The notes under the pieces were generated by a model that was not told the origin of the DNA, searched no databases, and saw only the letters and a list, made by a program, of their open reading frames with translations. This document shows, one piece after another, positions 12,775-39,155 of a stretch of 40,607 nucleotides of DNA. Source of the stretch: Planctomycetia bacterium. Lineage in GTDB: Bacteria > Planctomycetota > Planctomycetia > Pirellulales > JALHLM01. The stretch spans positions 1 through 40,607 of the forward strand of contig JAWXBP010000086.1 in NCBI GenBank assembly GCA_034440135.1, given 5' to 3'. A program made the position numbers and the translations under genes. Within the stretch, counting starts at the first letter, position 1, and every line of letters starts with the position of its first letter.

Positions 12775-12780
12775 GTATCT

Positions 12781-23886: not shown

Positions 23887-24021
<135 letters not shown>

Positions 24022-24036
24022 TGAAAGACTTTGATT

Positions 24037-24079: not shown

Positions 24080-25300
24080 ATGCCGAAAGCCAAGTCTGTT
24101 CCGGCGTACCGTCGTCACAAGGCTCGCAATTGCGCCGTCGTGACCATTCACGGGCGCAATTTCTACCTGGGGCCATTCAATTCGCCCGAGTCTCGCGAAG
24201 TCTATGCCCGGCTTATTGCCGAGCACTTCGGCACCAGCCAACCGGACAGCGCGCCGTCGTCCAGCTTCATCGTTGGGCGCTCCGTAACAATCACGGAGTT
24301 AATTGCCACCTATTACGACCACGTACGGGGTTACTACCGGCGTGCGGATGGCAGCCCAACGGACGAAGTCAGCAACATCCGCCTGGCGTTGCGCCCAGTG
24401 CGCGAACTCTACGGCAGCACGTTGGCGGCAGAGTTTGGCCCATTGCGCTTGCAAGCGGTACGCCAAAGTCTGATTGACGGCCGCCCGCCTGCTGCGCCGG
24501 GTGATAACGGCCGTCGCCCATGGTGCCGAACCAGCGTCAATCGCGCCGTCGCCCGCATCAAGCAGCTATTCAAGTGGGGCGTGGCTCAGGAGTTGGTTCC
24601 GGCGGGCGTGTTTCACGGCCTGCAATCGGTCGCGGGACTTCGATTGGGCCGGAGCGGTGCGAGGGAAAGCGACCCGGTGAAGCCTGTGCCCCAAGCATTC
24701 GTCACGGCCGTACTTTCAATCGTGCGTCCGCACGTGGCCGCCATGATTCGGCTGCAACAACTCACGGGTGCGCGTCCCGGTGAGATTATCGCCATGCGTG
24801 GTCGCGACCTCGACGTGAGCGGTAAGGTCTGGGCGTATCGTCCGACTATGCACAAGACAGCGCACCGTGGGCATCGACGAGAAATCTTTATCGGACCCGC
24901 TGGGCAGGACGTGGTGCGGCCGTATCTGAAAACGGACTTGCAAGCCTACCTGTTTTCGCCGCGTGAAGCGGAAGCACTGCGGGACGCTGAGCGAGTAGCC
25001 AAACGTCGGCCCTCGACGCCGAAGCGAGTGAGAACTTGCAAGGCCAACCCGCAACGCGCACCACGGGACCACTATTCGGTGCATTCATATTGCCGAGCAA
25101 TCGCGCGGGCGTGCATCAAAGCTGGCGTACCGGCGTGGCATCCGCACCAATTGCGGCACAGTCGCGCCACCGAGTTGCGGCGAGACCATGGCGTGGAGTT
25201 GGCTCGAATCGTCCTGGGCCACGCTACGGCATTCACAACCGAGATCTATGCGGAAGCGGATCGACAGCAGGCTGTCGAGGTCATGGGACAAATTGGTTGA
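24080..25300 (+). CDS. Tyrosine recombinase / integrase of element 1
   Basis: This protein has 406 residues. An N-terminal basic beta-rich part ('NCAVVTIHGRNFYLG') leads into a SAM-like core-binding domain (about 75-185) and a catalytic domain (about 215-400). The active-site set is visible: R232 in TGARPGE, H356 and R359 in HPHQLRH, H381 in LGHAT and nucleophile Y390 in TEIYAE. A Lys/Arg-rich insertion (about 300-340) precedes the HxLRH box; this layout is shared with the second integrase at 39215. The ATG at 24080 is chosen over an upstream TTG because the aligned start of the second integrase is also MPKxxS. It recombines the tRNA-Asn att sites. It lies 58 bp inside the att repeat, as is usual for tRNA-targeted islands. 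Confidence 0.95.
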   Translation: MPKAKSVPAYRRHKARNCAVVTIHGRNFYLGPFNSPESREVYARLIAEHFGTSQPDSAPSSSFIVGRSVTITELIATYYDHVRGYYRRADGSPTDEVSNIRLALRPVRELYGSTLAAEFGPLRLQAVRQSLIDGRPPAAPGDNGRRPWCRTSVNRAVARIKQLFKWGVAQELVPAGVFHGLQSVAGLRLGRSGARESDPVKPVPQAFVTAVLSIVRPHVAAMIRLQQLTGARPGEIIAMRGRDLDVSGKVWAYRPTMHKTAHRGHRREIFIGPAGQDVVRPYLKTDLQAYLFSPREAEALRDAERVAKRRPSTPKRVRTCKANPQRAPRDHYSVHSYCRAIARACIKAGVPAWHPHQLRHSRATELRRDHGVELARIVLGHATAFTTEIYAEADRQQAVEVMGQIG

Positions 25301-25309
25301 GCCGAATAT

Positions 25310-25377
25310 TTGACTTTTGCACGGCGGAGGAGCATAACATTTCCGGCTTTCCTCGGTTGACCGTGTTTCAACGGTCA
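25310..25377 (+). promoter_or_regulatory. Sigma70-like promoter and operator-like dyad behind integrase 1
   Basis: TTGACT (25310-25315) and CATAAC (25333-25338) are separated by 17 bp. Downstream, TGACCGT-gtttca-ACGGTCA (25358-25377) is a perfect 7-bp dyad that would lie near the start of the transcript. The half-site ACGGTCA also occurs in the integrase leader (24057-24063), so one regulator may act on both. It would drive the gene at 25410. Confidence 0.45.
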
Positions 25378-25409
25378 GGGCAAGCGTTTGGGGCTGAAGG
25401 GAGACTCAG

Positions 25410-25754
25410 ATGGGTGACAAGAAGAAGATTGAAAAGTTCGAGAATGACATCAAGGCAAAGGAAACGCAAATCGAGTTGGCAGAGGATCTGCTGGCGAAAT
25501 GGAAAAACAACAACGCCAAGTCGCCCCTGACATCGGCCGACGAGCGAATCTTGGCAAGTGGAGCACACGGCGTTCATGGCAAAGCGAGTTACGGAGATGC
25601 ATTCGCCACGCTGAAGGCAAACATCAAGCAAGCAAATAAGGAACTCGTGCAACTGAGAAAAGAATTGAAGGAAGAGCAAGACAGACCGAAAGCGGAAAAG
25701 AAGCCTTCGAGAGTCGAGCAAAAAGCGAACATGGGCAAGGGAAAGCACAAGTAG
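25410..25754 (+). CDS. Small charged coiled-coil protein
   Basis: This 114-residue protein is very rich in Lys and Glu. Residues 1-36 and 68-95 form amphipathic helices with heptad character (IEKFENDIKAKETQIELAED; ANKELVQLRKELKEEQ), separated by a short 'SADERILASGAHGVHGK' segment. The tail (about 92-114) is basic. 'GAAGGGAGA' lies before the ATG as a ribosome site. I do not recognise a family. It is the first gene after the integrase, behind its own promoter candidate. A DNA- or protein-binding accessory role is possible but unsupported. Confidence 0.7.
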   Translation: MGDKKKIEKFENDIKAKETQIELAEDLLAKWKNNNAKSPLTSADERILASGAHGVHGKASYGDAFATLKANIKQANKELVQLRKELKEEQDRPKAEKKPSRVEQKANMGKGKHK

Positions 25755-25839
25755 CGATGTCGAGAATCGCGTCCTTGATCCCTGCCAATTGCCAATGAAT
25801 CGAATCTTGCCGTGCTAGGGGAAGTCATGATCCCCGTGG

Positions 25840-25883
25840 CCGATCGGCGCTGCGGAAACATCATCCGCCGTGGTGCCGATCGG
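25840..25883. promoter_or_regulatory. Hairpin upstream of the gene at 25914
   Basis: CCGATCGGC (25840-25848) and GCCGATCGG (25875-25883) form a perfect 9-bp dyad with an inner CGG/CCG. Both arms are themselves nearly palindromic. It could end transcription of the coiled-coil gene or act as an operator of the next one. There is no T-run. Confidence 0.4.
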
Positions 25884-25913
25884 TCGGCCGGTCCAACAAA
25901 GGGATGATGAACG

Positions 25914-26552
25914 ATGGGTTGGTATCGAAGCGACGAATGGAAAGAACTTCTTCGCGAACTTGGCGAATGGGATGAAATAGCCCGTGATTTCGCATGGTCA
26001 CCTGAGGAACACTCTCGCCCGCAACGATTCAGTTGGATTACCTTCAAGGCAATTGAGCTAGCGGCAAGGCTGGCCCCAGAAATCGATACTTCAGAACTGC
26101 ATGTCTTCAGTGAACTCTGGCATGCAAGAGACGATGCTTTTTTGACTCCGCCGACAGAACGCCTTTGGCCGCTCACTTCCGATAATTCATTGAAGATTCG
26201 ACTTTTGCGATGCAAGGGCCTTATTCTGCGATTAGAGGCCATCGGGACAGTTTCAGAGAAGCCCAATGACGCCCCCAAGGAAAGGCCCGAGTGGAAAAAA
26301 GGCAAATCGATCGGAGAGCTGACATTTCGTGGCGATGTCATTCGCAAGGTTAAGATCAGTGCGGCCAAACTGGTGCCCATTCTCGATGGCTTCCAAGAAC
26401 TTGGATGGCCAGACACAGCGCTAAGCCCGCTGTCCGACGACACCGACGGGGAACGGTTGCGAAGTGCCTTGAAACAACTCAACAACGGACTAACGCTAAT
26501 CAAGTTTCACGCGACGGGCGACAAACGTGGTGCCGGTTGGTATCCGCTCTAG
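25914..26552 (+). CDS. Uncharacterised element protein, possible C-terminal winged helix
   Basis: This 212-residue soluble protein is Trp-rich at the N-terminus ('MGWYRSDEWKELLRELGEWD'). The middle is helical and charged. The C-terminal 55 residues (ILDGFQELGWPD...RLRSALKQLNNGLTLIKFHATGDKRGAGWYPL) resemble a small winged-helix-like module that I associate with hypothetical proteins of planctomycetes, though I cannot name a family. AAAGG lies upstream as a ribosome site. The opposite strand also carries a long open frame here, but it is Ser/Arg-rich and not credible. A regulatory role in the element is an inference from its place between the integrase and DUF1580 genes. Confidence 0.7.
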   Translation: MGWYRSDEWKELLRELGEWDEIARDFAWSPEEHSRPQRFSWITFKAIELAARLAPEIDTSELHVFSELWHARDDAFLTPPTERLWPLTSDNSLKIRLLRCKGLILRLEAIGTVSEKPNDAPKERPEWKKGKSIGELTFRGDVIRKVKISAAKLVPILDGFQELGWPDTALSPLSDDTDGERLRSALKQLNNGLTLIKFHATGDKRGAGWYPL

Positions 26553-26662
26553 GCTACCCATACTTACCCAGCAACATACCCGTGCTTACTTAGACATTCC
26601 GAGAAATACTCGCACAATCGCATGTGTTGGCTCTTACTGTCATCCACTTGCGAGCGTGCGAC

Positions 26663-26950
26663 ATGGCAATCGACTTTTCCGCCGAGACCCCTCTCTCCAT
26701 CGCCGAAGCGGCGGCGATTATCCCCGGCCGACCCTCTCTGGCGTCGGTCTGGCGCTGGGTGCTCAAAGGCGTCCGTGGCAATCAGCTTGAATCGCTGATG
26801 ATCGCCGGTCGCCGATTCACCAGCCATGAAGCGATTGACCGCTTCATCCAGCGCAGCAACTCCACTCCCTCTTTGCCGGCCATCGTTACGGCAACCCGTC
26901 GCCGCGAGATCGCGGCTGCAACCAGTTACTGCGAAGCGGCTGGCATCTAG
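26663..26950 (+). CDS. DUF1580-type DNA-binding protein (excisionase/regulator-like)
   Basis: This 95-residue protein has the pattern TPLSIAEAAAIIPGRPS followed by 'SVWRWVLKGVRG', 'LESLMIAGRRFTSHEAIDRF'. It fits DUF1580, a small family of planctomycetes with a MerR/excisionase-like helix-turn-helix: an A-A-x-x-P helix, a W-R-W recognition helix and the wing 'GVRG'. The ATG at 26663 is chosen because it begins the conserved part; the upstream TTG at 26624 adds nothing recognisable. It sits just before the replication genes, where excisionase or replication regulators are usual. It probably binds DNA of the element; its target is unknown. Confidence 0.8.
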   Translation: MAIDFSAETPLSIAEAAAIIPGRPSLASVWRWVLKGVRGNQLESLMIAGRRFTSHEAIDRFIQRSNSTPSLPAIVTATRRREIAAATSYCEAAGI

Positions 26951-26962
26951 TCGGCGCTCAAC

Positions 26963-26987
26963 AAAAAACCCCGGCGGCTAACCGGGG
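26963..26987 (-). terminator. Intrinsic terminator on the minus strand
   Basis: On the minus strand the sequence reads CCCCGG-ttagccg-CCGGGG followed by TTTTTT (26968-26963). On the plus strand, where all neighbouring genes lie, the hairpin is not followed by T. It would therefore stop antisense transcripts rather than the operon itself. Confidence 0.55.
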
Positions 26988-27029
26988 CGTCACGATCCGT
27001 GTGTTTGCTTGAGAACTGGAGAACGAACC

Positions 27030-27314
27030 GTGCAAACAAAGTTTACCGAAACATACCCGCCCGAGCAACCAACGCGCTGTGTCATTCCCGCCGAACTGCG
27101 CATCACGCGCATCCTTTGGTTCCCCGGTGGCGGCATCATCACCGGCACCGTGGGCGACGTGGAGTTTTGTCTCGATCTGCCGACGGCTGTGATTCTTGAC
27201 CGCCGCAAGCTCGTTCAAAACGTCTGGCGATTCCGTCAACTGTTGGGCATCGTGCCGACCATCGAGGCTTGGAATTCGATGCTGGCGACGGCAGAGGAGG
27301 CGGGCCGGGCATGA
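27030..27314 (+). CDS. Small protein preceding the primase gene
   Basis: This 94-residue protein starts at GTG 27030, with GGAG 8 bases upstream; a TTG at 27009 is less likely. It is compact and beta-rich ('ILWFPGGGIITGTVGDVEFCLDL') with a helical C-terminus ending in EEAGRA. No family is recognised. Its stop overlaps the start of the primase-helicase (ATGA at 27311-27314), so the two are translationally coupled and probably work together in element replication. Confidence 0.7.
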   Translation: MQTKFTETYPPEQPTRCVIPAELRITRILWFPGGGIITGTVGDVEFCLDLPTAVILDRRKLVQNVWRFRQLLGIVPTIEAWNSMLATAEEAGRA

Positions 27315-29635
27315 TTGCAGCCACGAACGGACACACGACGAACGGCGCGACGCCGGACTGGCTTAAGGTCAACGGGGATTCCATCCCCGCCGAGTTGAAG
27401 CAACGCGAGCAATGGGTGGGCTGGCGGGCGCTGCCAGGCAAGAACGGCGCGAAGCCTCGCAAGATGCCATATGACCCAGTGAACCGGCGCAATGCAAGTT
27501 GTGACGATCCCGCCACGTGGCATCGCTTTGAAGAATGCTGGTATCCCTATCTTGCGGACCCGCAACGTTTCGCTGGTATCGGATTCGAGTTTTCGGCCGA
27601 CGATGAATACGCCGGCATCGACTTGGACAAGTGTCGCGACGCAGACACCGGAGAATTGCACCCGACGGCGCTGCAAATCTTGGCGACGATCAAGAGCTAC
27701 GCCGAGATTTCGCCATCCGGCACCGGCGTCAAGTTGATCGTCAAAGGCAAACTGCCCGAGGGCATCAAACACAAGGCCGCCGTCGATGGAATCGAAATTG
27801 AAACCTACGATCAGGGGCGATACTTCGCCCTGACAGGCCACGTCGTTGACGCCGAGCACGCCGAGATTATCGAGGCTCAGCAGCAACTCGACGCAATCGT
27901 TCAACAGATTCAGCACGCCCATAGTGCTAAAGCTCAGCCGCAACAAAGCCCCAAGCCCGGCACCGGTAGCGATGATCGCTTTCGCCGAGCGCTCAAACGG
28001 GCAATCAGCATCAAGACGGGCGAAGAAAACGACGGCAGCCGGCGTCTGCTGAAGGTCTGCATCATTGCCGTGGAAATGGACCTGCCCGACGGCGACGCGT
28101 TCCGTCTTGTGGCAGAAGTTCATCGGTTGGTGCCGTTCCCGAGTGAGTTCACCGAAGCGGAGATTCTGTTAAGGCTGCGTGATGCCGAGCAGAAAACAAT
28201 TCGCGGCAAGTCGCTTAATGATGCGCCGCAACAGCAAACGTCGACGGGCAGTTCAGACATCAAATTATCCCTCCACTTCGTCGATGCCCGCACGGAACTT
28301 GCGAACGCGAGACGATTCATCGCCAAATACGGAATGCGAGTCGTGTACTGTGATCCATGGAAAAGTTGGCTGGTATTCAATGGACGGCATTGGGAAACGG
28401 ACGAACGCCGCGTCATCGAGTCGCTGGCGAAGACGGAAGCCGCCGAGCAATGGGATGAAGTCGCCAAGATCAATAAGACGGAAGGTGCCGCCGAGCAACT
28501 CAAGCAGGCCGTCACGGCGTTCGCCAGAGCTAGCAATTCCGCGAACGGCATCCGCAACGCGCTGGCGCTTGCGAAGAGTGAGCCGGGCGTGCCAGTGCTC
28601 CCCAAGCAACTGGACGCGCAGCCGTGGTTGCTGAATGTCGAAAACGGCACCCTCGATTTGCGATCCGGAAAGCTACAGCCGCATCGTCGGGATGACCTGC
28701 TCACCAAGCTGGCCCCGGTGGTTTATGACCCGGCGGCCGAGTGTCCGCAATGGCTGCGGTTTCTTGATCGGATCATGGACAACAAGCAGTCTCTGGTGAG
28801 TTTCCTTCAGCGCTCCGTCGGCATGTCGATTACCGGCATCGTGCGGGATCACTGCTTGTTGTTTTGCTACGGCGTCGGTGCCAACGGCAAAAGCGTGTTT
28901 CTCAACACCATCAAGCGGTTGATGGGCGACGATTACGGACTGAACGCGCCGCCGGAGTTACTGCTCGTTAAACCGCAAGGCGGAGGGCATCCGGTGGAAA
29001 CGGCTAGCTTATTCGGCAAGCGATTCGTGTCCGCCATCGAGGTAGACGACGGCCGACGCTTCGCCGAGGCCACGATCAAGATGCTCACCGGCGGCGACCC
29101 AATCACGACCCGCCGCATGTATGAGAACTTTTGGACATTCTGGCCCCAGCACCACATCTGGGTGGCGGGCAATCATCGGCCCGTCATCCGTGGAAACGAT
29201 GTCGGCGTCTGGCGGCGCATCAAGTTGATTCCGTTCTCGGTCACGATCCCGCCAGAGGAACAAGACCAGGAGTTGCCGGAGAAGTTGCTCGGTGAGTTGA
29301 GCGGCATCCTCAATTGGGCGCTGCAAGGCGTTCGGGACTGGTTGGACTACGGCTTGCATGAGCCGGCGGAAGTGTTGGCGGCGACCAGCGAGTACCGGGC
29401 GGATATGGACGTGTTTGGGGATTACCTCGCTGAGCGGTGCGATCTAAACGCAACAAGCACGATCAAGGCCAGCGATTTGTACGCGGACTATAGGGCGTGG
29501 GGGGACGCATCTGGCGAGTATGTGATGAGTCAGCGCGGATTCGGCCGGAAGCTTACCGAACGCGGCATCGAGCGATACACGAACAACGGCACCCACTACC
29601 GAGGCGTCGACCTGCGGAGCCGGCTGGAATTCTGA
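27311..29635 (+). CDS. P4-type primase-helicase (D5-like) of element 1
   Basis: This protein has 774 residues. The N-terminal half is primase-like, with a prim-pol style region (about 20-190; 'WVGWRALPGKNGAKPRKMPYDP', 'GIGFEFSADDEYAGIDLDKC', 'EIETYDQGRYFALTGH'). The C-terminal half is a D5_N plus superfamily 3 helicase module: Walker A GVGANGKS at 521-528, a Walker B-like 'RFVSAIEVDDGRRF', a sensor segment 'HHIWVAGNHRPVIRG', and 'VWRRIKLIPF'. The ATG at 27311 overlaps the preceding stop. Phage/plasmid P4-family proteins of this size start and unwind replication from iteron-containing origins. Five CGGAACC heptamers lie just after its stop codon. It is likely the replication initiator of the excised element. 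Confidence 0.92.
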   Translation: MIAATNGHTTNGATPDWLKVNGDSIPAELKQREQWVGWRALPGKNGAKPRKMPYDPVNRRNASCDDPATWHRFEECWYPYLADPQRFAGIGFEFSADDEYAGIDLDKCRDADTGELHPTALQILATIKSYAEISPSGTGVKLIVKGKLPEGIKHKAAVDGIEIETYDQGRYFALTGHVVDAEHAEIIEAQQQLDAIVQQIQHAHSAKAQPQQSPKPGTGSDDRFRRALKRAISIKTGEENDGSRRLLKVCIIAVEMDLPDGDAFRLVAEVHRLVPFPSEFTEAEILLRLRDAEQKTIRGKSLNDAPQQQTSTGSSDIKLSLHFVDARTELANARRFIAKYGMRVVYCDPWKSWLVFNGRHWETDERRVIESLAKTEAAEQWDEVAKINKTEGAAEQLKQAVTAFARASNSANGIRNALALAKSEPGVPVLPKQLDAQPWLLNVENGTLDLRSGKLQPHRRDDLLTKLAPVVYDPAAECPQWLRFLDRIMDNKQSLVSFLQRSVGMSITGIVRDHCLLFCYGVGANGKSVFLNTIKRLMGDDYGLNAPPELLLVKPQGGGHPVETASLFGKRFVSAIEVDDGRRFAEATIKMLTGGDPITTRRMYENFWTFWPQHHIWVAGNHRPVIRGNDVGVWRRIKLIPFSVTIPPEEQDQELPEKLLGELSGILNWALQGVRDWLDYGLHEPAEVLAATSEYRADMDVFGDYLAERCDLNATSTIKASDLYADYRAWGDASGEYVMSQRGFGRKLTERGIERYTNNGTHYRGVDLRSRLEF

Positions 29636-29640
29636 GTGAA

Positions 29641-29773
29641 CGGAACCTTACGGAACCAGCGGAACCTTCTGACCCTATTTCTGAAAACTATTCCACACAC
29701 ACGCACATGGAACACTTTTCAAAAACACAATCAAAAGGTTCCGTTCCCTCCGTGACGGCACCGAAGCGGAACC
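29641..29773. other. Candidate replication origin: CGGAACC iterons with AT-rich core
   Basis: CGGAACC occurs at 29641-29647, 29651-29657 and 29660-29666 (spacing about one helix turn), then inverted (GGTTCCG) at 29737-29743, then direct again at 29767-29773. The segment between (about 29675-29736) is the most AT-rich stretch nearby. The site begins 5 bp after the primase-helicase stop. P4 alpha protein is known to use short iterons of similar size at its origin. Confidence 0.5.
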
Positions 29774-29913
29774 GGAAGCCGCCGGACCCTCGACGCCATG
29801 CAGTATGGCAGCCGTTGAGCGACCACGAAGTGGCGCTGGCGGCAGCGCTGGAAGCGGAAGCTCAGGCGCAGCATGTGAAGATGGGTAAAGGACGTTCAAT
29901 CTCTACAGCCTGA
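29707..29913 (+). CDS. Possible small basic protein
   Basis: This 68-residue frame starts at ATG 29707 and overlaps the right part of the iteron region. Its second half ('RRHAVWQPLSDHEVALAAALEAEAQAQHVKMGKG') has coding-like helical character, while the first half is basic and Pro-rich. No ribosome site is evident, and a longer version opening before 29707 would overlap the primase. The family is unknown. The gene is doubtful. Confidence 0.35.
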   Translation: MEHFSKTQSKGSVPSVTAPKRNRKPPDPRRHAVWQPLSDHEVALAAALEAEAQAQHVKMGKGRSISTA

Positions 29914-29980
29914 CGGCCTACATACGTCGGGGGAGGCGAGCGCATTTCACAGCCGCCCCGGTTCAAAAGGGAACTGATTA

Positions 29981-30322
29981 ATGACCAGACCAAGCAAAAC
30001 AGCCGATCCGCCGGCCCACCTGAGCCCCGAGGCGGCAGCCTGGTGGCGGAAGGTACTCGGCGACTTCGTATTTGAGGCGCATCACCTGAAGCTCTTGCAA
30101 GCCGCCTGTGAGGCATGGGACCGGTGCCAGCAAGCGCGGGAACAAATCGCCACCGAGGGGTTGACCTTCAACGACAAACACGGCCAACCCCGCGCACACC
30201 CTTGCGTCGGCATCGAGCGCGACGCCCGGATTGCGTTTGCCCGACTGGTTCGCGAATTGGTACTCGACTGCGAACCGCCGACGGAAGCCAGACCGCCACG
30301 ACTTGCAGGAGCGAGGGCCTAA
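29981..30322 (+). CDS. P27-family phage terminase small subunit
   Basis: This 113-residue protein has the P27-type pattern: 'LSPEAAAWWRKVLGDF', 'EAHHLKLLQAACEAWDRCQQAREQI', 'GLTFNDKHGQPRAHPCVGIERDARIAFARLVREL'. These are the helical DNA-recognition and oligomerisation parts of small terminases. It would choose the DNA to be packaged. No large terminase follows; the next genes are an unknown protein and the portal. A small terminase without its motor subunit is typical of satellites that redirect a helper phage packaging motor. Its stop overlaps the next start (TAATG). Confidence 0.85.
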   Translation: MTRPSKTADPPAHLSPEAAAWWRKVLGDFVFEAHHLKLLQAACEAWDRCQQAREQIATEGLTFNDKHGQPRAHPCVGIERDARIAFARLVRELVLDCEPPTEARPPRLAGARA

Positions 30323-30876
30323 TGCCATCCATTCGACGTCGCAACAAGCATCGCTCGCAGTACACGCAACTCGAATACTACGCGGTCGCCAGCGGCCACG
30401 ACTTCTTCGGTTCGTTCAAGACTGAAGACGACTGGCGCGAGGCGTGGCAGGCAATGAAAGACGAATTATTGCCGGCATTCATTCAGCAATGCCCGGGGCA
30501 ACGGCCGTGGGCGTGGTGGAAGTTTGAAGCGACGGAGCGCAGGCAACCGGCAGACGGCAAGCCACACCCATTCGACGACCCCGAGCGGCAAGCCCACTTG
30601 GACCGCATCGCAGCCAGCATGCCAGTGGAAGATCGTGAAGCGTACTACGCAAGTTGCAATGAGCTTTACTTCGGGCTGCCGAGATGCCTGTGCATCAAGG
30701 CGGACTTTGGCCGGCTGTACGAAGACCAGGCCACGTACCTCGAACGCTTGGGGCTGCTGACGGACGCCGAACGCGAGTTCATCGCAGCGCTGCCCGCTGA
30801 CTGGCAGGAACGGGAATTCGACGAAAAGAAGTTTGACGCCAAAGCGTGGGCGCGATCAACGAACGCACCGCTCTAA
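30322..30876 (+). CDS. Uncharacterised protein in the packaging module
   Basis: This 184-residue soluble protein starts at ATG 30322, overlapping the small terminase stop codon, so it is probably coupled to it. It contains 'EDDWREAWQAMKDELLPAFIQQCPGQRPWAWWKFEA', a segment with many Trp residues, and a helical C-terminal half ending 'QATYLERLGLLTDAEREFIAALP'. This Trp-rich pattern with 'GxRPWAWW' is often seen, as I recall, in small hypothetical proteins between phage terminase and portal genes. No catalytic motif is seen, and it is too short and lacks Walker motifs for a large terminase. Confidence 0.75.
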   Translation: MPSIRRRNKHRSQYTQLEYYAVASGHDFFGSFKTEDDWREAWQAMKDELLPAFIQQCPGQRPWAWWKFEATERRQPADGKPHPFDDPERQAHLDRIAASMPVEDREAYYASCNELYFGLPRCLCIKADFGRLYEDQATYLERLGLLTDAEREFIAALPADWQEREFDEKKFDAKAWARSTNAPL

Positions 30877-30907
30877 CAAACCTTCAATCAATCAGGAGAT
30901 AAACGCA

Positions 30908-32212
30908 ATGCTCAATTCGCTTCGCTCATGGTTCCGCCGACCGCCGGCCGTCGAGGAACGCAGCACACACGCCTTGAGATTGGGCGGCGGGAGTTGGTTT
31001 TACAACTTGCTGGGCGACTATTCCCGAGCAGCGAGCGGTGAGACGGTCACAACTTCTACGGCGCTGCAAACAAGCGCGGTTTACGCGGCCGTGAAGGTCA
31101 TCAGCGAATCGGTCGCGTCGATGCCGTTGCACGTATTTGAACGTCGCCCCGACGGCAGCCGGCAGCGCGTCTATGCTCCGACGTTGCGAGCCATCACCGA
31201 ACAACCGAACAGCCGTCAAACATTGTTTGAATGCATCGAACAATTGACCGCCCACGCCTTGCTACGGGGCGACGGGATTGCGGCGGTGCTTCGTGACCAG
31301 TTTGGCAATGCGGCCGCCATCGTGCCGATGCATCCAGACCATGTGACCATCGAGCAAGTGAATGGCGAGTCCGTGTACACGTTCCGCGACGCCCGCCAAA
31401 AGGTACACCGCTTCACATCGGACGAGGTCTTGCACTTGCGGGGCATGACCTGGGACGGCATTCGCGGCATGTCACTGGTGGCCATGGCCCGGGAAGCAAT
31501 CGGCGCGAACATCGCTCTCGACAAGTACGCTGGCAAGTTCTTTGCCAACAACGCGCGACCGAGCGGCATTCTGAGTTGCGACGGCCCCTTGAAGCCCGAG
31601 GCCGCCAGCCAAATGCGCACCAGTTGGAATGAAGTTCACGCCGGCGCAGACAGCGCCCATAAGGTGGCCGTGCTGACGGACGGGATGAAGTGGTCGCCGA
31701 TCAGTCTTTCGAATGAAGACTCGCAGTTCATTGAGTCCCGCCGCTTTGGCGTGGAGGAAATCTGCCGTGTGACGCGGATTCCGCCGCACCTGCTGGGCGA
31801 CTTGTCGCACGCCACATTCTCGAACGTCGAAAACTTGGGACTGCAATTCGTGACATTCACGCTTCTGCCGTGGATTCGCCGCTGGGAAGAAGTAATTCAA
31901 CGCGACTTGATTGCGGACCCGGACTTGTACTGCGAATTCAAGCAAGAAGTGCTGTTGCGCGGCGACATCAACTCACGCTACGCCGCGTACATGACGGGAC
32001 GACAGGGCGGCTGGTTGAGCGCCAACGACATTCGCACCCTTGAAAACATGGATGGTATCGGCACGCAAGGCGACGTGTATCTCACCCCCATGAACATGGA
32101 AGCAGCGGACGAAAGCAAGAAACCCAAAGTGATCGACAAACCGACTCGCCAGAATGGCCATTCGCATGGTGCGAACGGTCACGCGGCGAGCGCCATTTCC
32201 TGGAGGTCCTAA
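30908..32212 (+). CDS. HK97-family phage portal protein
   Basis: This protein has 434 residues. The ATG at 30908 has AGGAG upstream. It shows the family features: 'TALQTSAVYAAVKVISESVASMPLHVFER' near the N-terminus, 'HALLRGDGIAAVLRD', 'VLHLRGMTWDGIRGMSLVAMAREAIGANIALDKYAGKFFANNARPSGIL', 'FIESRRFGVEEICRVTRIPPHLLGD' and 'NVENLGLQFVTFTLLPWIRRWEEVIQRDL'. It is full length for the family. Portals form the dodecameric ring for DNA entry into the head. An intact portal with no capsid or large terminase gene nearby is unusual. The stop overlaps the next start (TAATG at 32210-32214). Confidence 0.93.
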   Translation: MLNSLRSWFRRPPAVEERSTHALRLGGGSWFYNLLGDYSRAASGETVTTSTALQTSAVYAAVKVISESVASMPLHVFERRPDGSRQRVYAPTLRAITEQPNSRQTLFECIEQLTAHALLRGDGIAAVLRDQFGNAAAIVPMHPDHVTIEQVNGESVYTFRDARQKVHRFTSDEVLHLRGMTWDGIRGMSLVAMAREAIGANIALDKYAGKFFANNARPSGILSCDGPLKPEAASQMRTSWNEVHAGADSAHKVAVLTDGMKWSPISLSNEDSQFIESRRFGVEEICRVTRIPPHLLGDLSHATFSNVENLGLQFVTFTLLPWIRRWEEVIQRDLIADPDLYCEFKQEVLLRGDINSRYAAYMTGRQGGWLSANDIRTLENMDGIGTQGDVYLTPMNMEAADESKKPKVIDKPTRQNGHSHGANGHAASAISWRS

Positions 32213-32754
32213 TGAGTCCCGCAACGAAGTCGACCGAAGCCGTCACGCAAGCCGTGCAATCGCGCCGTCAAGCACAACGACGTGAAGCCCTCGAAGCCTA
32301 TCGGAAATTTATTCAGCAAAGCCACGACGGCAAGAAGCTGAGCGAAGCCGACACGGCAAAAGTGGTCGACGCGATGAACCTGCTCGAAATTCCCACCGAG
32401 GCGATCGACGCCGACGTGGAGGCGTGGGGACGTCAGCGCTCGTATCGCCAGTCGTTGGCGGACGTGGCCGACCGCCGCAAGAAGCATCAAGCAGATTGCG
32501 AACGACTGACTACGCAGATCAACGAAACGCGGGACAAGTTGAGGGCGCTGGAGCGCGAACACCGGGTGACGGCGCACGAGGGGCAAATGATTGCTGCTTT
32601 GGAAGGCCAAGCCAACCAACATTCGGCCGCGAACCCGAGACTGTTTGCCGACGACATCGACCGGGCGTTGTCCCCTCCGCGCCCAGTACCGCAATTCTCT
32701 CGCGTGCCGCCGGACCCGGGTCAACCCGTCGTGCCCTACTTCCACATCACTTAG
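32212..32754 (+). CDS. Coiled-coil protein between portal and protease genes
   Basis: This 180-residue, highly charged, largely helical protein has a long coiled coil at about 80-135 ('DVADRRKKHQADCERLTTQI', 'RDKLRALEREH') and a Pro-rich C-terminal tail (about 155-178). It is coupled to the portal gene by a TAATG overlap and lies 9 bp before the protease gene. A scaffold- or adaptor-like role in head assembly would fit its place and composition. I recognise no family, and this is only inference. Confidence 0.75.
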   Translation: MSPATKSTEAVTQAVQSRRQAQRREALEAYRKFIQQSHDGKKLSEADTAKVVDAMNLLEIPTEAIDADVEAWGRQRSYRQSLADVADRRKKHQADCERLTTQINETRDKLRALEREHRVTAHEGQMIAALEGQANQHSAANPRLFADDIDRALSPPRPVPQFSRVPPDPGQPVVPYFHIT

Positions 32755-32763
32755 GAGACGCCC

Positions 32764-33420
32764 GTGGAAAAACTGTACTACAACTCCGCTCCGGAGACTC
32801 GCGGCATTTCCCCGAAGGCTCGCCCCGCTGGCGAGCCGGAGGGGGAGTTGCGGCCGATGACCCTCGACGGTCTGGCGACCTGCTATGACGTGATGATTCC
32901 CCGTACCAAGCACCAACTTCTCTTCCGCAAAGGCGCGTTCGCCGAATGCCTGCGCTCGAAGCGCTGCGACGCCGTGGCACTTCTGCAGCACGAAAGCGAT
33001 AAGCTTCTCGGGCGGCAGAGTGCCGAGACGCTCAAGTTGTGGGAATCCAGTCAGGGATTGTGTTGCTCCATCAAGCTGCCTAACACAGCGATCGGGCGTG
33101 ATACCTGGACGAGCGTCGAACGTGGCGACTTACGACAAATGTCCATCGGATTCGACTTCCTGGAAGACAGTTGGGAAGTCGTCAACGGCAAATCGACGCG
33201 CGTCATCAGCCGGGCCTGGATTGATGAGGTGTCGCTCGTGACGTGGCCAGCATGTCGCGAAACCTACGTTCGCCCCGCCAGGCGCACCACGCTCGCCATG
33301 GCGCGGGCGACAATTGCCAAACTCACGGGAAAGGTATATGCCCCAAGCAAGCCAACAAACACTGCAAAGTCTCAAGCGATCTATCGACGCGCGCCTGTCT
33401 CGGTTCCGTTCTTTGGCTGA
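32764..33420 (+). CDS. HK97-family prohead protease
   Basis: This protein has 218 residues. It starts at GTG 32764, with AGGAG 7 bases upstream. The herpesvirus-assemblin-like fold is indicated by 'PRTKHQLLFRKGAFAECL', catalytic H76 in LLQHESDKLLGR, nucleophile S127 in RQMSIGFDF and 'AWIDEVSLVTWPACRETYV'. Such proteases cut the scaffold (delta) region off the major capsid protein during head maturation. No major capsid gene follows; instead two very small genes do. The C-terminal 40 residues are basic and variable. Confidence 0.9.
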   Translation: MEKLYYNSAPETRGISPKARPAGEPEGELRPMTLDGLATCYDVMIPRTKHQLLFRKGAFAECLRSKRCDAVALLQHESDKLLGRQSAETLKLWESSQGLCCSIKLPNTAIGRDTWTSVERGDLRQMSIGFDFLEDSWEVVNGKSTRVISRAWIDEVSLVTWPACRETYVRPARRTTLAMARATIAKLTGKVYAPSKPTNTAKSQAIYRRAPVSVPFFG

Positions 33421-33532
33421 ACGGGCAGAGGCCGAGTATCGCGATTTGACCGATGCGGAATTCGCCAACGCTCGCCACCTACTCGACGAAGCGGAGGCGC
33501 TTCGGGTCACACTTCAGGAACTGATGCAATGA
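33338..33532 (+). CDS. 64-residue delta-domain-like protein
   Basis: It starts at ATG 33338 inside the protease gene (other frame), with GGGAAAGG upstream. It forms one long helix: 'LQSLKRSIDARLSRFRSLAERAEAEYRDLTDAEFANARHLLDEAEALRVTLQEL' in outline. The 'RDLT.AEF....LLDEAEAL' part resembles the N-terminal scaffold (delta) region of HK97-type major capsid proteins, which normally begins the gene directly after the protease. Here the frame stops at the end of that helix, so it is either a free scaffold fragment or the remains of a deleted capsid gene. Resemblance is by eye. Confidence 0.5.
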   Translation: MPQASQQTLQSLKRSIDARLSRFRSLAERAEAEYRDLTDAEFANARHLLDEAEALRVTLQELMQ

Positions 33533-33759
33533 TCGCCTTCTTGAAAGAGAGCGCAACGATGCCTCCGGAAAACCAGCGCGCCCGCAATTTACTCTTGATT
33601 GCTCGTGCGCGGCTATTGGAAGCGGAAGAATGGCTGCGCAAGCAAGATGAAATGTCCGACAAGCACCTGAGCGAAGACTACCACCGGGTGGCGCTCAATG
33701 AAACGCGCGGCGCTATCCAACTTGCCATTGACGCAGGACGAATGTTGATGAAGCGTTGA
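33529..33759 (+). CDS. Small helical protein at the end of the head module
   Basis: This 76-residue protein has its start ATG overlapping the previous stop (ATGA at 33529-33532), so it is translationally coupled. It is helical and charged ('RARNLLLIARARLLEAEEWL', 'NETRGAIQLAIDAGRMLMKR'), without signal peptide or motif. It is the last plus-strand gene of the module; the cargo gene downstream is convergent. Function unknown. Confidence 0.65.
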   Translation: MIAFLKESATMPPENQRARNLLLIARARLLEAEEWLRKQDEMSDKHLSEDYHRVALNETRGAIQLAIDAGRMLMKR

Positions 33760-33797: not shown

Positions 33798-35534
33798 CTA
33801 AGCATCTTCCGCATCGATCGGCAAAGGTGAAATGCCAAACTTACGAAAGTACTTTTTGGTGAGCAGTTTGTCCAGGTCGAGTTCATTCTTTAGATTACGA
33901 AGAACATATTGATAGAAAGTACCCGTGAAATTATCCGCTTCGGCCACCAGGTGCAATGAATAGTCCCAAAGCAGAGACTCGATTGGCCGTGCATGCGATA
34001 TCATCGTCAACAGTTCCAGATCGCCAATCGTCAACACAATCAGTTGTTGGATTCGGTGATCCGACGCATATTCTCCCATCGCCTCCGAAAATTTACTCTG
34101 TAGCCACCGTCGAACTGCGTTTGGCGACAATCTCTCTTCGAGACAAACGAGCACTGGAAAGATGCGCTGCACGGCCGTCAAATCGTACCCATCGTTTTGG
34201 ACTTGGATGAAATGCTCACCATCAAGAAGCCTACGGATATTTGCTGCAATCTGGACGACGCCCTTCTTGTCGGAACTCGATGTTCCAGCACCGATGGAGC
34301 CAATGCCCTGCAGCACTTCGGCTGTTGAGTTTGCCATACGTTGCCGAGTTGTCAGAAGCGACGCCTTGTATTCCATCACCGCGACTGAATGATGCCAAAG
34401 CAGCATTCCGTCAGCTGCTTCATCCTTTGAACCTTGAAAGCGCGGACGACGCAAAAACGTTCGTAGAGGCCCATCGCAGGGCAAGAACTCAGCGAGGACA
34501 CGCTCGACGTACGACTCAAAGATTACGCCGATGAACGCGCCAAACTGCTTTCCGTAGGCACGCTGCAGCAGGTAATAGACACGGTCGATGCATGCGTGGG
34601 CGAGTAGGTTTAAGTCCGGACAACAATACTTACCTGCCTCAACCTCGATCAGAGGACGTTCAGAAAGCGGTGTAACATCGTACGACCACGACTGCCTGCT
34701 TCGAAGCAGTTGAAGTGCAAGGTCGTCCGGGGTTTGCGATAACATCCCCAGGCTCTTGATCCATTCATCCTCCGATATGCCGGCGTCGCTCTCGTACTTG
34801 AACTCAAAGAGAATTGGCGAAGCTACTTTAGTCGCATGGTGCCCAGCAAACTTCGTGAAGACTGCGACAAGTGAACGAAGCAGAGCCGCCAATGAAAATG
34901 AAAACTCCTTTTGGAATACGTCATGCGCACTTGGCACTCCGAGTCGCTTGGCTCGCCGCATGAAGGCAGTATCGTTCAGGACTTCGTCCCAAAGCAGGCA
35001 GGCTCTGCCAACTACCTCAACATTGATGCGAGTACTCGAAAAATCAAGTAGCGGAACTACGACAGCAATCATCCATTCCAATGGAGGGACATCGATCAGC
35101 GACCTTTGAAAGCTTGCGTTAAGCTCATTCAACAGGTCGCTCGCCATGAACATAGCCTTCGCTACTTGCCGTTCTGCATCCGCTTTGTTTGGGAAGTCAG
35201 CGCCGTCGTCGCCGCAAAGGACGGACAGTTGCAAAACGAGCCACAACGCACGTCGATGAAAAATGATTGCATTCGACCGTGCCCCGCTTTCACGAAGCTT
35301 TATGATTTGATTTGCCCAGTCGGGCGGCAGCAGTTGGCGCGCCCAGCCAATTTGCTGATCAGCATCACTGGCTGCTGGCGAGTATAGGTAGCGTGACATC
35401 ACGCAGATAGCGCGAAGCAATTCACGACGAGGAACGGAACGAACGGTGCTTACGACGTCTCTCGTCGTTGCGCTTGTCTTGAATACTTCCGCATACGAAA
35501 GATATGGAGCAATTCGAAGATCAAGGTTGTTCAT
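33798..35534 (-). CDS. Candidate PD-(D/E)XK nuclease, possible defence protein
   Basis: This 578-residue protein starts at ATG 35534 (MNNLDLRIAPYLSYAEVF). Residues 1-300 are almost entirely helical, with no known motif. Residues 310-470 look like a restriction-endonuclease fold: 'GAFIGVIFESYVERVLAEFL' (helix with conserved Glu), then D375 in ADGMLL and E388-x-K390 in VAVMEYKAS, giving D-x12-ExK. The C-terminal part (480-578) is helical. No membrane segment or ATPase motif is present. Nucleases with a large helical N-terminal part are common among single-gene anti-phage systems, and the position at the variable end of an integrated element fits. The catalytic assignment rests on the motif only. 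The gene is more AT-rich than the chromosomal genes. Confidence 0.75.
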   Translation of the reverse strand: MNNLDLRIAPYLSYAEVFKTSATTRDVVSTVRSVPRRELLRAICVMSRYLYSPAASDADQQIGWARQLLPPDWANQIIKLRESGARSNAIIFHRRALWLVLQLSVLCGDDGADFPNKADAERQVAKAMFMASDLLNELNASFQRSLIDVPPLEWMIAVVVPLLDFSSTRINVEVVGRACLLWDEVLNDTAFMRRAKRLGVPSAHDVFQKEFSFSLAALLRSLVAVFTKFAGHHATKVASPILFEFKYESDAGISEDEWIKSLGMLSQTPDDLALQLLRSRQSWSYDVTPLSERPLIEVEAGKYCCPDLNLLAHACIDRVYYLLQRAYGKQFGAFIGVIFESYVERVLAEFLPCDGPLRTFLRRPRFQGSKDEAADGMLLWHHSVAVMEYKASLLTTRQRMANSTAEVLQGIGSIGAGTSSSDKKGVVQIAANIRRLLDGEHFIQVQNDGYDLTAVQRIFPVLVCLEERLSPNAVRRWLQSKFSEAMGEYASDHRIQQLIVLTIGDLELLTMISHARPIESLLWDYSLHLVAEADNFTGTFYQYVLRNLKNELDLDKLLTKKYFRKFGISPLPIDAEDA

Positions 35535-35716: not shown

Positions 35717-36214
35717 TCAGTCGCCGCGCAGTGGAACCAAGGGCATTATGTATTCGCTCGATAGCTGGCCCTCCACTTCCAGATATGCGAGGCCCCAATC
35801 GGGACGGCCGCAGTCATTTACTCGCATGTCGTGCCAGAATTGGCTGTAGAACGGATGCCCATCAACGAAGCCAGTGCCTTCCCATACCACACGAGTCGTG
35901 AAATCTCCATTCGCACTGCCGCGCATTGCGACTGTTGTCAGGGCGAGCGCCGTACGGCCCTCTGCGGCAAAAACCGGTTTCAACAGCATACGGCAAGCGG
36001 TGACTGCCTCAACTTGCCGCGCAGTGAGTTCGTCGAGCGAGAGGTGGCTGATGGGTGGACTGATATTAATCTCGTCTGTTGGCACCGTCACAGGCGGCGG
36101 ATTGCTCCTGTTGTCAGTGCATCCGGCCAGGCAGCACGCAACCAACATGGCGGCCGTCAGCTGCCGGAGCATTAGCGATAGCGACTTGTGAGTGCAGCGG
36201 ATGAGGCGGGTCAT
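35717..36214 (-). CDS. Lipoprotein of unknown function
   Basis: This 165-residue protein has a lipoprotein signal sequence with hydrophobic core 'LTAAMLVACCLAGC' and lipobox LAGC (lipidated Cys near residue 32, counting from the ATG at 36214). The mature part is polar, with 'VVWEGTGFVDGHPFYSQFW', and holds no recognised motif. The start overlaps the stop of the upstream gene (ATGA at 36211-36214), so the two envelope proteins are co-translated. The 182-bp gap down to the nuclease gene shows no clear site. A role at the membrane together with the next protein is likely; what they do is unknown. Confidence 0.7.
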   Translation of the reverse strand: MTRLIRCTHKSLSLMLRQLTAAMLVACCLAGCTDNRSNPPPVTVPTDEINISPPISHLSLDELTARQVEAVTACRMLLKPVFAAEGRTALALTTVAMRGSANGDFTTRVVWEGTGFVDGHPFYSQFWHDMRVNDCGRPDWGLAYLEVEGQLSSEYIMPLVPLRGD

Positions 36215-36828
36215 TTGTCGGCCTTTGCTGGCTCGATTGGTTTTACAACGAAGACCGTGCTAGTTCCACCGATTGCCGTGTCATACGTCTCGGTGCCCTC
36301 GACTCGATACGCGCCCCGAATCGGCTTGATTCTGTCGCCGTCGGTCCATTCATCAGTGTCAATTCCGCGCAACATGAATGGTTTGCCAACTACTTCTTTT
36401 TGGCGTGTAACGAAGTTTCCTTGCTGGGCTGGACCGGAGCCAATCACGTCAGCGTAAGTTTGCGTGCTAATGGGCGACAGCAGAGCCGATTGCTCGTCGA
36501 TGACCTGCTGCACTACAAGCGACAGATTAAGCACTCCCATTTTGCCCTTTTTGAGTGGTTTGTCATTCCACAAACTGGGCTCAACGTAGAAACTCTTGCG
36601 GGAGACTGCTTTAACTCGGCGTTTGAGTACTCTGAGTCGCTCGGCATATTCCTTGCTGCCTCGATTGCGCAGTGCTTCCGACGTCACGTCTTTGAGCTTC
36701 TGCTTTTCGCCCGCAACATACGCTTGCGTGTGAGCTTCGACACACTCGCGGTAGTCGTCCGGCCATTCGGACGGCTTCATCGACTGAGGCGATATGAGCA
36801 ACATTGCGCAGGCCACTACGGCTAACAT
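36211..36828 (-). CDS. Secreted protein of unknown function
   Basis: This 205-residue protein has an N-terminal signal peptide (MLAVVACAMLLISPQS). It has a helical, charged first half (about 25-80, 'KQKLKDVTSEALRNRGSKEYAERLRVLKRRVKAVSRKSF') and a beta-rich second half (about 90-200, 'GVLNLSLVVQQVIDEQ', 'DEWTDGDRIKPIRGAYRVEG', 'STVFVVKPIEP'). No family is recognised. It is the first gene of a two-gene unit with the lipoprotein. Its base composition differs from the backbone genes, in line with acquisition as cargo. Confidence 0.7.
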   Translation of the reverse strand: MLAVVACAMLLISPQSMKPSEWPDDYRECVEAHTQAYVAGEKQKLKDVTSEALRNRGSKEYAERLRVLKRRVKAVSRKSFYVEPSLWNDKPLKKGKMGVLNLSLVVQQVIDEQSALLSPISTQTYADVIGSGPAQQGNFVTRQKEVVGKPFMLRGIDTDEWTDGDRIKPIRGAYRVEGTETYDTAIGGTSTVFVVKPIEPAKADK

Positions 36829-36920: not shown

Positions 36921-37544
36921 TCATTCGGCCGCCGCAATGTCGGTGCCGTCAATCCAACGTCGCCATTGATTGTCCTGAGGAAACTCTGCGCCGCATGCCT
37001 CAACGCAAAGGCCAACTACTTCTTCGCCAGGAAGCGTGCGCAATCCGTCACTATTTGGACGTGATTCGAGCAGCGCGTCCTTTACAGCATCAATGGCAGA
37101 TGCAATTCCATCAGTCTGAACAACTTCAGACGTCTTCTTACGTGCTTCTTGAACGAGTCTATTCACGTCTGGCATATGTGGTACGCTCCAGCGATCCTTT
37201 GGGTTCCATGAACTTGTGGTTAACCCAAGATGGACTCGCGCCGCGAACAGAATTTCAATCCAATCGTCACGAAACTCGGCATTGTCGGTGCTGTAACGAA
37301 TGTCGGACACTACGGCTCCTGCAAAGAGAACCAAGAGTCGACTTTTCACCACGGACGACTGTAGTAGTTCCGCACTTGTTGGAGGCGTCGCAAACATCCG
37401 AGGGTCTGACCCGAGTCCGCCAACGATCCTAATCTGAATCATTTCTAGTAGCGGTCCCCAACCCACGAACCATTGCATTGCACTGTGCCCCGCCTCATGG
37501 GTTGCTAGCCGTTCCGGATTGTCGTTCACTTGAATCGCTGTCAT
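36921..37544 (-). CDS. Free-standing M41 (FtsH-peptidase)-like zinc protein
   Basis: This 207-residue soluble protein opens with the zinc motif 'ATHEAGHSAMQWFVG' (H16, E17, H20), the HEAGH form typical of the M41 peptidase domain of FtsH. The later segment 'LVLFAGAVVSDIRYSTDNAEFRDDWIEILFAARVHLGL' matches the FtsH stretch 'LAGR.AEE...G...ND...AT..AR.MV...GM' and offers D93/D94 as the third zinc ligand. No AAA ATPase or membrane domain is present, so it would act on its own or with a host partner. It is a single gene in the cargo region; its substrate is unknown. It could also be a catalytically idle relative. Confidence 0.75.
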   Translation of the reverse strand: MTAIQVNDNPERLATHEAGHSAMQWFVGWGPLLEMIQIRIVGGLGSDPRMFATPPTSAELLQSSVVKSRLLVLFAGAVVSDIRYSTDNAEFRDDWIEILFAARVHLGLTTSSWNPKDRWSVPHMPDVNRLVQEARKKTSEVVQTDGIASAIDAVKDALLESRPNSDGLRTLPGEEVVGLCVEACGAEFPQDNQWRRWIDGTDIAAAE

Positions 37545-37658: not shown

Positions 37659-37723
37659 CATTGGTCAGATGCCAATAGATTCCTCTCAGAATGGCTTTGG
37701 AAAAAACCAGGGGAGCACAAAAC

Positions 37724-38458
37724 ATGCAATTGCGAAAGGAGGACGAGCATCGGCTCGCATTACTCGCGGCATTGCTGCACATTGGTGGCAGTGGCACGAA
37801 GAAGGAAGTGCTCGACGCGGTTGCGGATCTTGAACTCATGAAGTTGACCAACCGACAGAAAGAACTAAAGCACAATCGCCCAGAAGTCGTATGGCGCAAT
37901 GAACTTGCGTACACAAAGCATCACCTTTCGCTGGAAGGATGTTGTGCAAAGGGAACGCGGAACCTATGGGCTATCACTGACAGTGGCCGCGAGTATGCAA
38001 TGCATCTTGCAGCTGGCGCGATCAACAGCAGCGACGGTCGGCATGTGCGGTTGAAAGATGCGGCGGCCGTCGTTCAAGTGAATCTTTACTCGTCAGCCAA
38101 TATTGAGAAGATGCCGCTGAGTTCCGTTGCGATCGAGGGCGAACACAAGTTGGTGTGGACGGTCACTTACGAGCGCAATCAGCAATTACGCGCCGCTGCA
38201 ATTCGAATTCATGGCGTGAATTGCATGGCATGTGGTTTTTCTTTCAGCGTTGCGTATGGCCAACTCGGAGAAGGGTATATCGAAGTTCATCATTTGAACC
38301 CGATTAGCCAGCTTGAATCCCCCAGACAGGTTGACGCAGCGACTGATTTGGTCGTGCTTTGTGCGAATTGTCATTCAATGGCACACCGGCGAAAGGGAAG
38401 ACCGTATTCATTGGACGAGCTTCGAGAGTCCTTGGCTCAAAGCAGATTGGCCGAATGA
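37724..38458 (+). CDS. wHTH-HNH endonuclease
   Basis: This protein has 244 residues. The ATG at 37724 has GGGGAG 8 bases upstream and is preferred over 37691. The N-terminal part (about 1-95) resembles the winged-helix domain found in front of restriction nucleases ('ALLAALLHIGGSGTKKEVLDAVAD', 'LEGCCAKGTRNLWAITDSGREYA'). The C-terminal HNH domain (about 160-235) has CMACGF, 'GYIEVHHLNPISQL' with H189/H190, and 'TDLVVLCANCHSMAHR', giving a four-cysteine zinc site around the HHxN catalytic motif. Similar wHTH-HNH proteins act as restriction or modification-dependent nucleases. No methyltransferase is encoded nearby. As cargo of an integrated element, a defence role is plausible. Confidence 0.85.
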   Translation: MQLRKEDEHRLALLAALLHIGGSGTKKEVLDAVADLELMKLTNRQKELKHNRPEVVWRNELAYTKHHLSLEGCCAKGTRNLWAITDSGREYAMHLAAGAINSSDGRHVRLKDAAAVVQVNLYSSANIEKMPLSSVAIEGEHKLVWTVTYERNQQLRAAAIRIHGVNCMACGFSFSVAYGQLGEGYIEVHHLNPISQLESPRQVDAATDLVVLCANCHSMAHRRKGRPYSLDELRESLAQSRLAE

Positions 38459-38893: not shown

Positions 38894-38949
38894 TGGGCCA
38901 TGCTCCAGGAATGTACCGCGGTACGCCCTCCGTACCGCTATCGAATAAG

Positions 38950-38981
38950 GACTTATAACACGGTGCGAGCTGGTTTGCAAA
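38950..38981 (+). repeat. 32-bp direct repeat, right copy
   Basis: GACTTATAACACGGTG ending in GTTTGCAAA matches 37627-37658 at 26 of 32 positions, in the same orientation. It lies 70 bp left of the second att site. It could be an integrase arm site, a promoter or the trace of a cassette insertion. Confidence 0.55.

Positions 38982-39051: not shown

Positions 39052-39155
<104 letters not shown>

What the first reader, a model, noticed from the sequence alone, without database searches (positions are those of the whole stretch)
24080..33759. Satellite-like gene set: replication and packaging genes without large terminase, capsid or tail
Element 1 has an integrase, DUF1580 regulator, P4-type primase-helicase, P27 small terminase, HK97 portal and prohead protease, several joined by start/stop overlaps and apparently intact. 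The large terminase, major capsid and tail genes are missing. Known phage satellites (P4, PICI, cf-PICI) keep replication and packaging-redirection genes and borrow the rest. A set with small terminase plus portal plus protease but no capsid is not a pattern I know, and planctomycete satellites are hardly described.
Basis: partly seen in the sequence, partly recalled or inferred. Interest (0 to 1): 0.85.

Follow-up and report, generated by a model that had tools for sequence, protein, structure and literature searches.

The report
Phage satellite lacking the packaging motor
This is a 15-kb parasite of bacterial viruses, integrated in a bacterium's chromosome, that carries its own DNA-packaging adaptor, portal and protease plus likely anti-virus weapons but must steal the packaging motor, shell and tail from a helper virus; it belongs to a little-described family spread across distant bacterial phyla whose members each carry a different subset of virus parts.

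Summary
The gene set is real and intact. The element is longer than reported: it lies between two copies of a tRNA-Asn end (69 nt identical; 23918 and 39052), about 15.1 kb, with cargo on the right (a GapS1-like anti-phage protein and an Mrr_N-HNH nuclease). No large terminase, full capsid or tail gene is present. A short ORF after the protease (33338-33532) looks like only the N-terminal delta/scaffold domain of an HK97 capsid protein.

Its P27 small terminase and the next gene, an orphan protein ("partner"), recur together in at least 21 loci from Planctomycetota, Sphingomonadales and metagenomes. In ten att-bounded elements the large terminase is absent from all and the portal from all but this one. 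The virion genes after the module change from element to element; homology with the closest relative stops at the end of the partner gene, and dN/dS there is far below 1. So this is an integrative phage satellite, not a simple prophage wreck, although decay of its own capsid gene cannot be excluded.

It fails the cf-PICI definition. It works like a partial-head satellite; mycobacterial phiRv1/phiRv2-type islands and the 11-kb record Alyssa1 are the nearest known things. The exact set (portal + protease, no capsid) was not found elsewhere.

The parts
23887..23960 (+). tRNA-Asn (gtt), integration target
   Evidence: ARAGORN
23918..24034 (.). attL region (tRNA-Asn 3' end)
   Evidence: 117-nt direct repeat with 39052-39168, 95%; 69 nt identical
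24080..25300 (+). tyrosine integrase
   Evidence: PF00589 2.4e-12; relative in L043 2e-76
25410..25754 (+). small coiled-coil protein, unknown
   Evidence: ORF; weak matches only
25914..26552 (+). unknown protein (212 aa)
   Evidence: ORF; no family match
26663..26950 (+). DUF1580 putative regulator/excisionase-like protein
   Evidence: PF07618 3.9e-16; also in L043
27009..27314 (+). unknown protein (101 aa)
   Evidence: ORF; no family match
27311..29635 (+). P4-type primase-helicase (D5_N)
   Evidence: PF08706 7e-35; TIGR01613 4e-91
29981..30322 (+). P27-family small terminase (TerS)
   Evidence: PF05119 3.8e-10; TIGR01558 6.6e-11, below its cut-off; 43-65% identical relatives in satellites
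30322..30876 (+). partner of TerS (p186): orphan helical protein in the slot where TerL usually sits
   Evidence: conserved next to TerS; L085 homolog 69% aa; model pLDDT 80, no PDB/BFVD match
30908..32212 (+). HK97-type portal protein
   Evidence: PF04860 4e-107
32212..32754 (+). predicted coiled-coil protein (p180); coiled-coil ORFs sit in similar places in relatives
   Evidence: ORF; only weak chance-level matches
32764..33420 (+). S78 prohead protease
   Evidence: PF04586 5e-26
33338..33532 (+). p72: probable free-standing HK97 capsid N-terminal delta/scaffold domain
   Evidence: delta-domain HMM E 0.008, best hit in the window
33529..33759 (+). p76, unknown, ATGA-coupled to p72
   Evidence: ORF
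33798..35534 (-). cargo: GapS1-family putative anti-phage protein
   Evidence: NCBIfam NF047931 6.7e-11 over residues 202-398, below the curated cut-off; no PADLOC match
35717..36214 (-). cargo: unknown, lipoprotein-like N-terminus
   Evidence: ORF; no family match
36211..36828 (-). cargo: unknown
   Evidence: ORF
36921..37544 (-). cargo: small HExxH protein, weakly like M41 peptidase
   Evidence: PF01434 0.05; L076 carries an HExxH ORF of similar size
37691..38458 (+). cargo: Mrr_N-HNH nuclease (restriction-like)
   Evidence: PF14338 6.7e-9, PF01844 9.7e-6; PADLOC mREase_IV 1.3e-5
38666..38980 (-). cargo: unknown small ORF
   Evidence: ORF
39052..39168 (.). attR region
   Evidence: direct repeat

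Best explanation
Element 1 is an integrative phage satellite. Shown from sequence: it sits in a tRNA-Asn gene between att repeats, and has its own integrase, replication primase, TerS and partner, portal, S78 protease and likely defence cargo, but no TerL, full capsid or tail. It belongs to a TerL-less family defined by the TerS-partner pair, in which the virion genes behind the pair are interchangeable. Inferred: when a helper HK97-like phage grows in the cell, the element excises and replicates with its own primase. TerS and partner mark its DNA and dock the helper's TerL, so the partner supplies in trans the adaptor role needed because TerL is foreign. The element's portal, protease and free delta-domain/scaffold act on the helper's capsid protein, to seat its own portal and probably to make satellite-sized heads. 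Helper tails are added. The cargo defends the host against rival phages.
For: att repeats; gene content; TerS and partner found together in at least 21 loci, with partner profiles built from alphaproteobacterial and planctomycete members finding each other (1.7e-6, 3.7e-6). Of ten att-bounded elements with the pair, 0 have TerL and 1 (this one) has a portal. Real phages with related TerS and a nearby TerL exist and serve as positive controls (L061, L074, L077, L083). Module boundary: 72.7% nt identity to L085 over 733 nt, ending at the end of p186. dN/dS: TerS 0.083/1.14, p186 0.25/2.2. Capsid-less att-bounded relatives that keep an S78 protease: L075, L082. Alyssa1: an 11-kb GenBank phage record, submitted as complete, with TerS, capsid and tape measure but no annotated TerL or portal.
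Against: No induction, excision or particle data. No helper in this assembly (no TerL_ATPase; the single capsid is in another island). The exact portal + protease set without capsid is unique here. The delta-domain call is weak (E 0.008). dN/dS covers only TerS and partner, and dS is near saturation. The adaptor role of the partner is inference; it has no known fold relative. TerL families other than PF03354 were screened only through Pfam/PHROGs scans of the window's own proteins.
Confidence: 0.7

Rival explanations
1. Decayed prophage: a complete HK97-type prophage lost TerL, most of the capsid gene and the tail genes, and cargo replaced them. p72 is then the stub of the lost capsid gene.
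For: p72 looks like a truncated capsid N-terminus right behind the protease, where the capsid gene should start. The exact gene set is found in no other element. Such loss is common in bacterial genomes (general knowledge).
Against: All ORFs are open with tight overlaps; the att repeat is 95% identical; TerS and partner are under purifying selection; relatives with the same module lack TerL in at least two bacterial phyla and carry different virion genes. Independent decay in each lineage would not give one shared TerL-less core.
Confidence: 0.17
2. Capsid-forming PICI (cf-PICI) that happens to be incomplete.
For: TerS, portal and S78 protease are cf-PICI genes; size and layout are similar (quoting PMC10690885).
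Against: cf-PICIs encode TerL, capsid, connectors and HNH beside TerS; TerL and capsid were tested and are absent. The TerS-partner relatives lack TerL too.
Confidence: 0.04
3. A domesticated anti-phage island: portal, protease and delta-domain are kept because they poison assembly of invading HK97-like phages, together with the GapS1-like and Mrr_N-HNH proteins; packaging of the island itself is lost or secondary.
For: Defence-like cargo; no helper in the genome; satellites are known to interfere with assembly (general knowledge).
Against: Intact integrase, primase, TerS-partner and att sites point to continuing mobility; selection on TerS-partner favours packaging.
Confidence: 0.09

Closest known systems
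Mycobacterial phiRv1/phiRv2-type islands and other candidate mycobacterial PICIs (PMC10654092, PMC3986857)
   Same: About 10-kb att-bounded islands, often at tRNA genes, with integrase, primase and a partial virion set: phiBN42_1 is listed with prohead protease and capsid, phiMycsm_1 with terminase, portal and HNH but no capsid.
   Different: The TerS-partner pair was not tested there; they usually keep a capsid; published calls are 'prophage-like' or 'candidate PICI'.
Mycolicibacterium phage Alyssa1 (OR387110, 11,078 bp)
   Same: Record with P27-like TerS, integrase, capsid and tape measure but no annotated TerL or portal: it works like one of the family.
   Different: Serine integrase; capsid and connectors present; the small gene after TerS was not shown to be the partner; no portal or protease.
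Capsid-forming PICIs (cf-PICI)
   Same: Satellite-coded head proteins: portal, protease, TerS.
   Different: cf-PICIs also carry TerL, capsid and connectors (PMC10690885); absent here.
PICI / P4-like satellites
   Same: Integrase, P4-type primase, TerS-based packaging redirection, size class, cargo.
   Different: They do not carry portal or prohead protease; no Sid, CpmAB, Rpp or AlpA match was found in the family scans.

Membership tests
phage satellite (general) | integrated element with att sites and own integrase | tested here: met
phage satellite (general) | own replication gene | tested here: met
   P4-type primase
phage satellite (general) | lacks genes needed to make a virion alone | tested here: met
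   no TerL, full capsid or tail
phage satellite (general) | mobilised by a helper phage | not testable with these tools
   needs induction/transfer experiment; no helper found in the assembly
cf-PICI | large terminase | tested here: not met
cf-PICI | major capsid protein | tested here: not met
   only a delta-domain-like ORF; the genome's single PF05065 hit is elsewhere
cf-PICI | portal and prohead protease | tested here: met
PICI (SaPI-like) | small terminase redirecting packaging | tested here: inconclusive
   TerS present; redirection not testable
PICI (SaPI-like) | capsid-size genes (CpmAB-like) or Rpp/AlpA | tested here: not met
   none in Pfam/PHROGs/NCBIfam scans
P4-like | P4-type primase | tested here: met
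   TIGR01613 4e-91
P4-like | Sid/Psu/Delta | tested here: not met
   none
TerS-partner satellites (proposed here) | P27 TerS immediately followed by a partner homolog, no TerL inside the att sites | tested here: met
phiRv1/phiRv2-type islands | homologous TerS-partner module | not tested
   those genomes were not fetched

The most novel reading that the evidence does not exclude
A satellite family crossing phyla, defined by TerS plus a previously unnamed partner protein that lets it borrow foreign TerLs, with an exchangeable slot behind it in which each lineage carries a different virion part. In this member the slot holds portal, protease and a free capsid scaffold domain, so it would replace the helper's portal vertex and head-assembly factors while using the helper's coat protein.
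Probability: 0.35. Interest if true: 0.8.

Novelty: new variant of a known kind. Interest (0 to 1): 0.63.

Why it matters
Known satellites either borrow the whole head or, like cf-PICIs, bring a complete head with its own packaging motor. This family brings single head or tail parts and an adaptor pair but never the motor, and it spans Planctomycetota and Alphaproteobacteria. If right, it fills the gap between PICIs and cf-PICIs, gives a gene pair by which such islands can be recognised (the cf-PICI gene set would miss them), and makes testable how a small terminase is matched to a foreign large terminase. It also points to mobile defence islands in planctomycetes, where satellites have hardly been described.

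Tried and rejected
Single-protein scans with the portal in viral and genome contigs gave no relative, and the portal in planctomycete genomes only 24-45% relatives: the portal is not the family marker, TerS-partner is. A p186 search in 392 planctomycete genomes and in annotated phages found none. The claim 'partner never occurs with TerL' was softened: phage L083 has a small Arg-rich ORF between TerS and HNH-TerL (not a significant match), and the TerL of L074 has an N-terminal extension weakly like a second partner type (E 0.006). L057 first looked like a satellite with TerL, but its att repeat (7738/17180) puts TerL and portal outside, in a surrounding prophage; joining its flanks did not give one clean protease ORF. 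The TerS tree did not resolve satellites against phages. Folds: the partner has no relative in BFVD or PDB; the p605 model was too poor to use. The partner alignment was too diverse for a contig scan.
Full report
Observation. The finding's genes are all present: integrase, DUF1580, P4-type primase-helicase, P27 TerS, portal and S78 protease. TerL, full capsid and tail genes are absent from the element, and the TerL_ATPase family has no match in the whole 7.29-Mb assembly. A direct repeat that begins inside tRNA-Asn, 117 nt at 95% with 69 nt identical, occurs at 23918 and 39052. The element is therefore about 15.1 kb, and its right third is cargo: a GapS1-family protein (6.7e-11, below the curated cut-off), an Mrr_N-HNH nuclease, a small HExxH protein and unknowns. 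A second integrase, 58% identical to the first, starts just behind attR (39215-40405), so a second element follows in tandem and is cut by the contig end.

First, a gene of 184 codons (30322-30876) overlaps the TerS stop by one base and sits where TerL normally lies; no library knows it. Second, the ORF behind the protease (33338-33532) resembles the N-terminal delta (scaffold) domain of HK97 capsid proteins. It is the best hit in the whole window of a delta-domain HMM (E 0.008), and its few weak phmmer hits include capsid N-termini. It is ATGA-coupled to the next small ORF.

Relatives. Portal relatives are distant (24-45%) and mostly look like ordinary phage neighbourhoods. TerS was the useful marker: scans brought in relatives from Sphingomonadales, a Phycisphaerales MAG and IMG/VR contigs. 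In nearly all, the gene behind TerS is a homolog of the 184-codon protein, here called partner: it starts MPxxRR and has conserved G, W and F positions. A profile built only from alphaproteobacterial-type partners finds the Phycisphaerales one at 1.7e-6, and one built only from planctomycete-like ones finds L056 at 3.7e-6. It is a helical protein (model pLDDT 80) without fold relatives in BFVD or PDB.

Anatomy of the family. Ten elements with TerS and partner could be bounded by exact repeats, mostly of tRNA 3' ends: this one, L034 (11.4 kb), L043 (9.6), L044 (9.4), L056 (9.2; 19-nt repeat), L057 (9.4; 19-nt repeat, inside a prophage), L058 (9.4), L060 (10.3), L075 (14.8), L082 (17.2). TerL_ATPase lies in none of them and the portal family in this one only; the same searches ring in full phages and prophages (L061/G414, L074, L077, L083 and others), which serve as positive controls. 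Seven have a capsid gene: L034, L043, L044, L056, L057, L058, L060. L075 and L082 have an S78 protease, an HK97-gp10-like protein and a tape measure but no recognised capsid. Unbounded pieces show further sets: L035 protease + tape measure; L085 two proteases; L079 a ClpP-type protease; L076 capsid + protease + a tail-tip-like ORF.

The module boundary. The closest relative, L085, is 72.7% identical in DNA over TerS-partner; the match ends at the end of the partner gene, and what follows is unrelated. TerS and partner are under purifying selection (dN/dS 0.083/1.14 and 0.25/2.2). So TerS-partner is a fixed core and the virion genes are a swapped cassette. This argues against the decayed-prophage reading as a whole, but the cassette of this particular copy could still be damaged: p72 may be a capsid stub.

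Host. The only HK97 capsid gene in the assembly (C505:5146-6468) sits in another att-bounded island, at tRNA-Gln, with integrase but no recognised TerS. No helper prophage was recognised, so the helper is probably an infecting phage (inference), or it lies in unassembled sequence.

Mechanism (inferred). TerS and partner mark the element's DNA and recruit a helper TerL. The portal, protease and free delta domain act on the helper's capsid protein; tails come from the helper; cargo defends the host. The weak likeness between the N-terminal extension of the TerL of phage L074 and a second partner type (E 0.006) hints that the partner may be a detached TerL docking domain; this is only a lead.

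Comparison. cf-PICIs encode TerL, capsid and connectors as well (PMC10690885): not met. PICI and P4 lack portal and protease. Nearest in gene style are mycobacterial islands: phiBN42_1 with protease and capsid, phiMycsm_1 with terminase and portal (PMC3986857), phiRv1/phiRv2 named as PICI-like (PMC10654092), and the 11-kb record of Alyssa1 with TerS, capsid and tape measure. No description of a TerS-partner module was found in the papers searched; that search was limited to open-licence PMC text.

Verdict. Satellite reading well supported; exact member unusual; mechanism inferred. New variant of a known kind.

Noticed in passing
window 39215-40405: Second tyrosine integrase (58% identical to the first) directly behind attR: a tandem second element cut by the contig end.
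   Followed up: partly
L092 (own genome C29:486-1862 and 578-621): Small contig with 44 nt of a tRNA-Asn end overlapping an integrase gene and a primase end: possibly a third element of the tandem array or one at another tRNA-Asn.
   Followed up: partly
L093 (own genome C160:7342-7367): 26-nt identical match to the element's left end: possible remnant of a related element.
   Followed up: no
L091 (own genome C505), 4540-14338: Second satellite-like island in the same host at tRNA-Gln (47-nt repeat) with integrase and a lone HK97 capsid gene, without recognised TerS, TerL or portal.
   Followed up: partly
L057, 7738-17198: TerS-partner-capsid-tape measure element inserted in the head-gene region (portal/ClpP-type protease) of a prophage with TerL and portal; 19-nt repeat.
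   Followed up: partly
L081, L070, L073: TerS elements sharing a contig with a TerL- and portal-bearing prophage: candidate satellite-helper pairs.
   Followed up: no
L074, 4523-6550: TerL with an N-terminal extension weakly like a second type of partner (E 0.006): possible fusion hinting at a docking role.
   Followed up: partly
L046 (OR387110, Mycolicibacterium phage Alyssa1): 11-kb record submitted as a complete phage, lacking annotated TerL and portal: probably a satellite.
   Followed up: partly
window 36921-37544 and L076:6255-6926: Small HExxH (M41-like) putative peptidases in the cargo region of two elements; no shared function shown.
   Followed up: no
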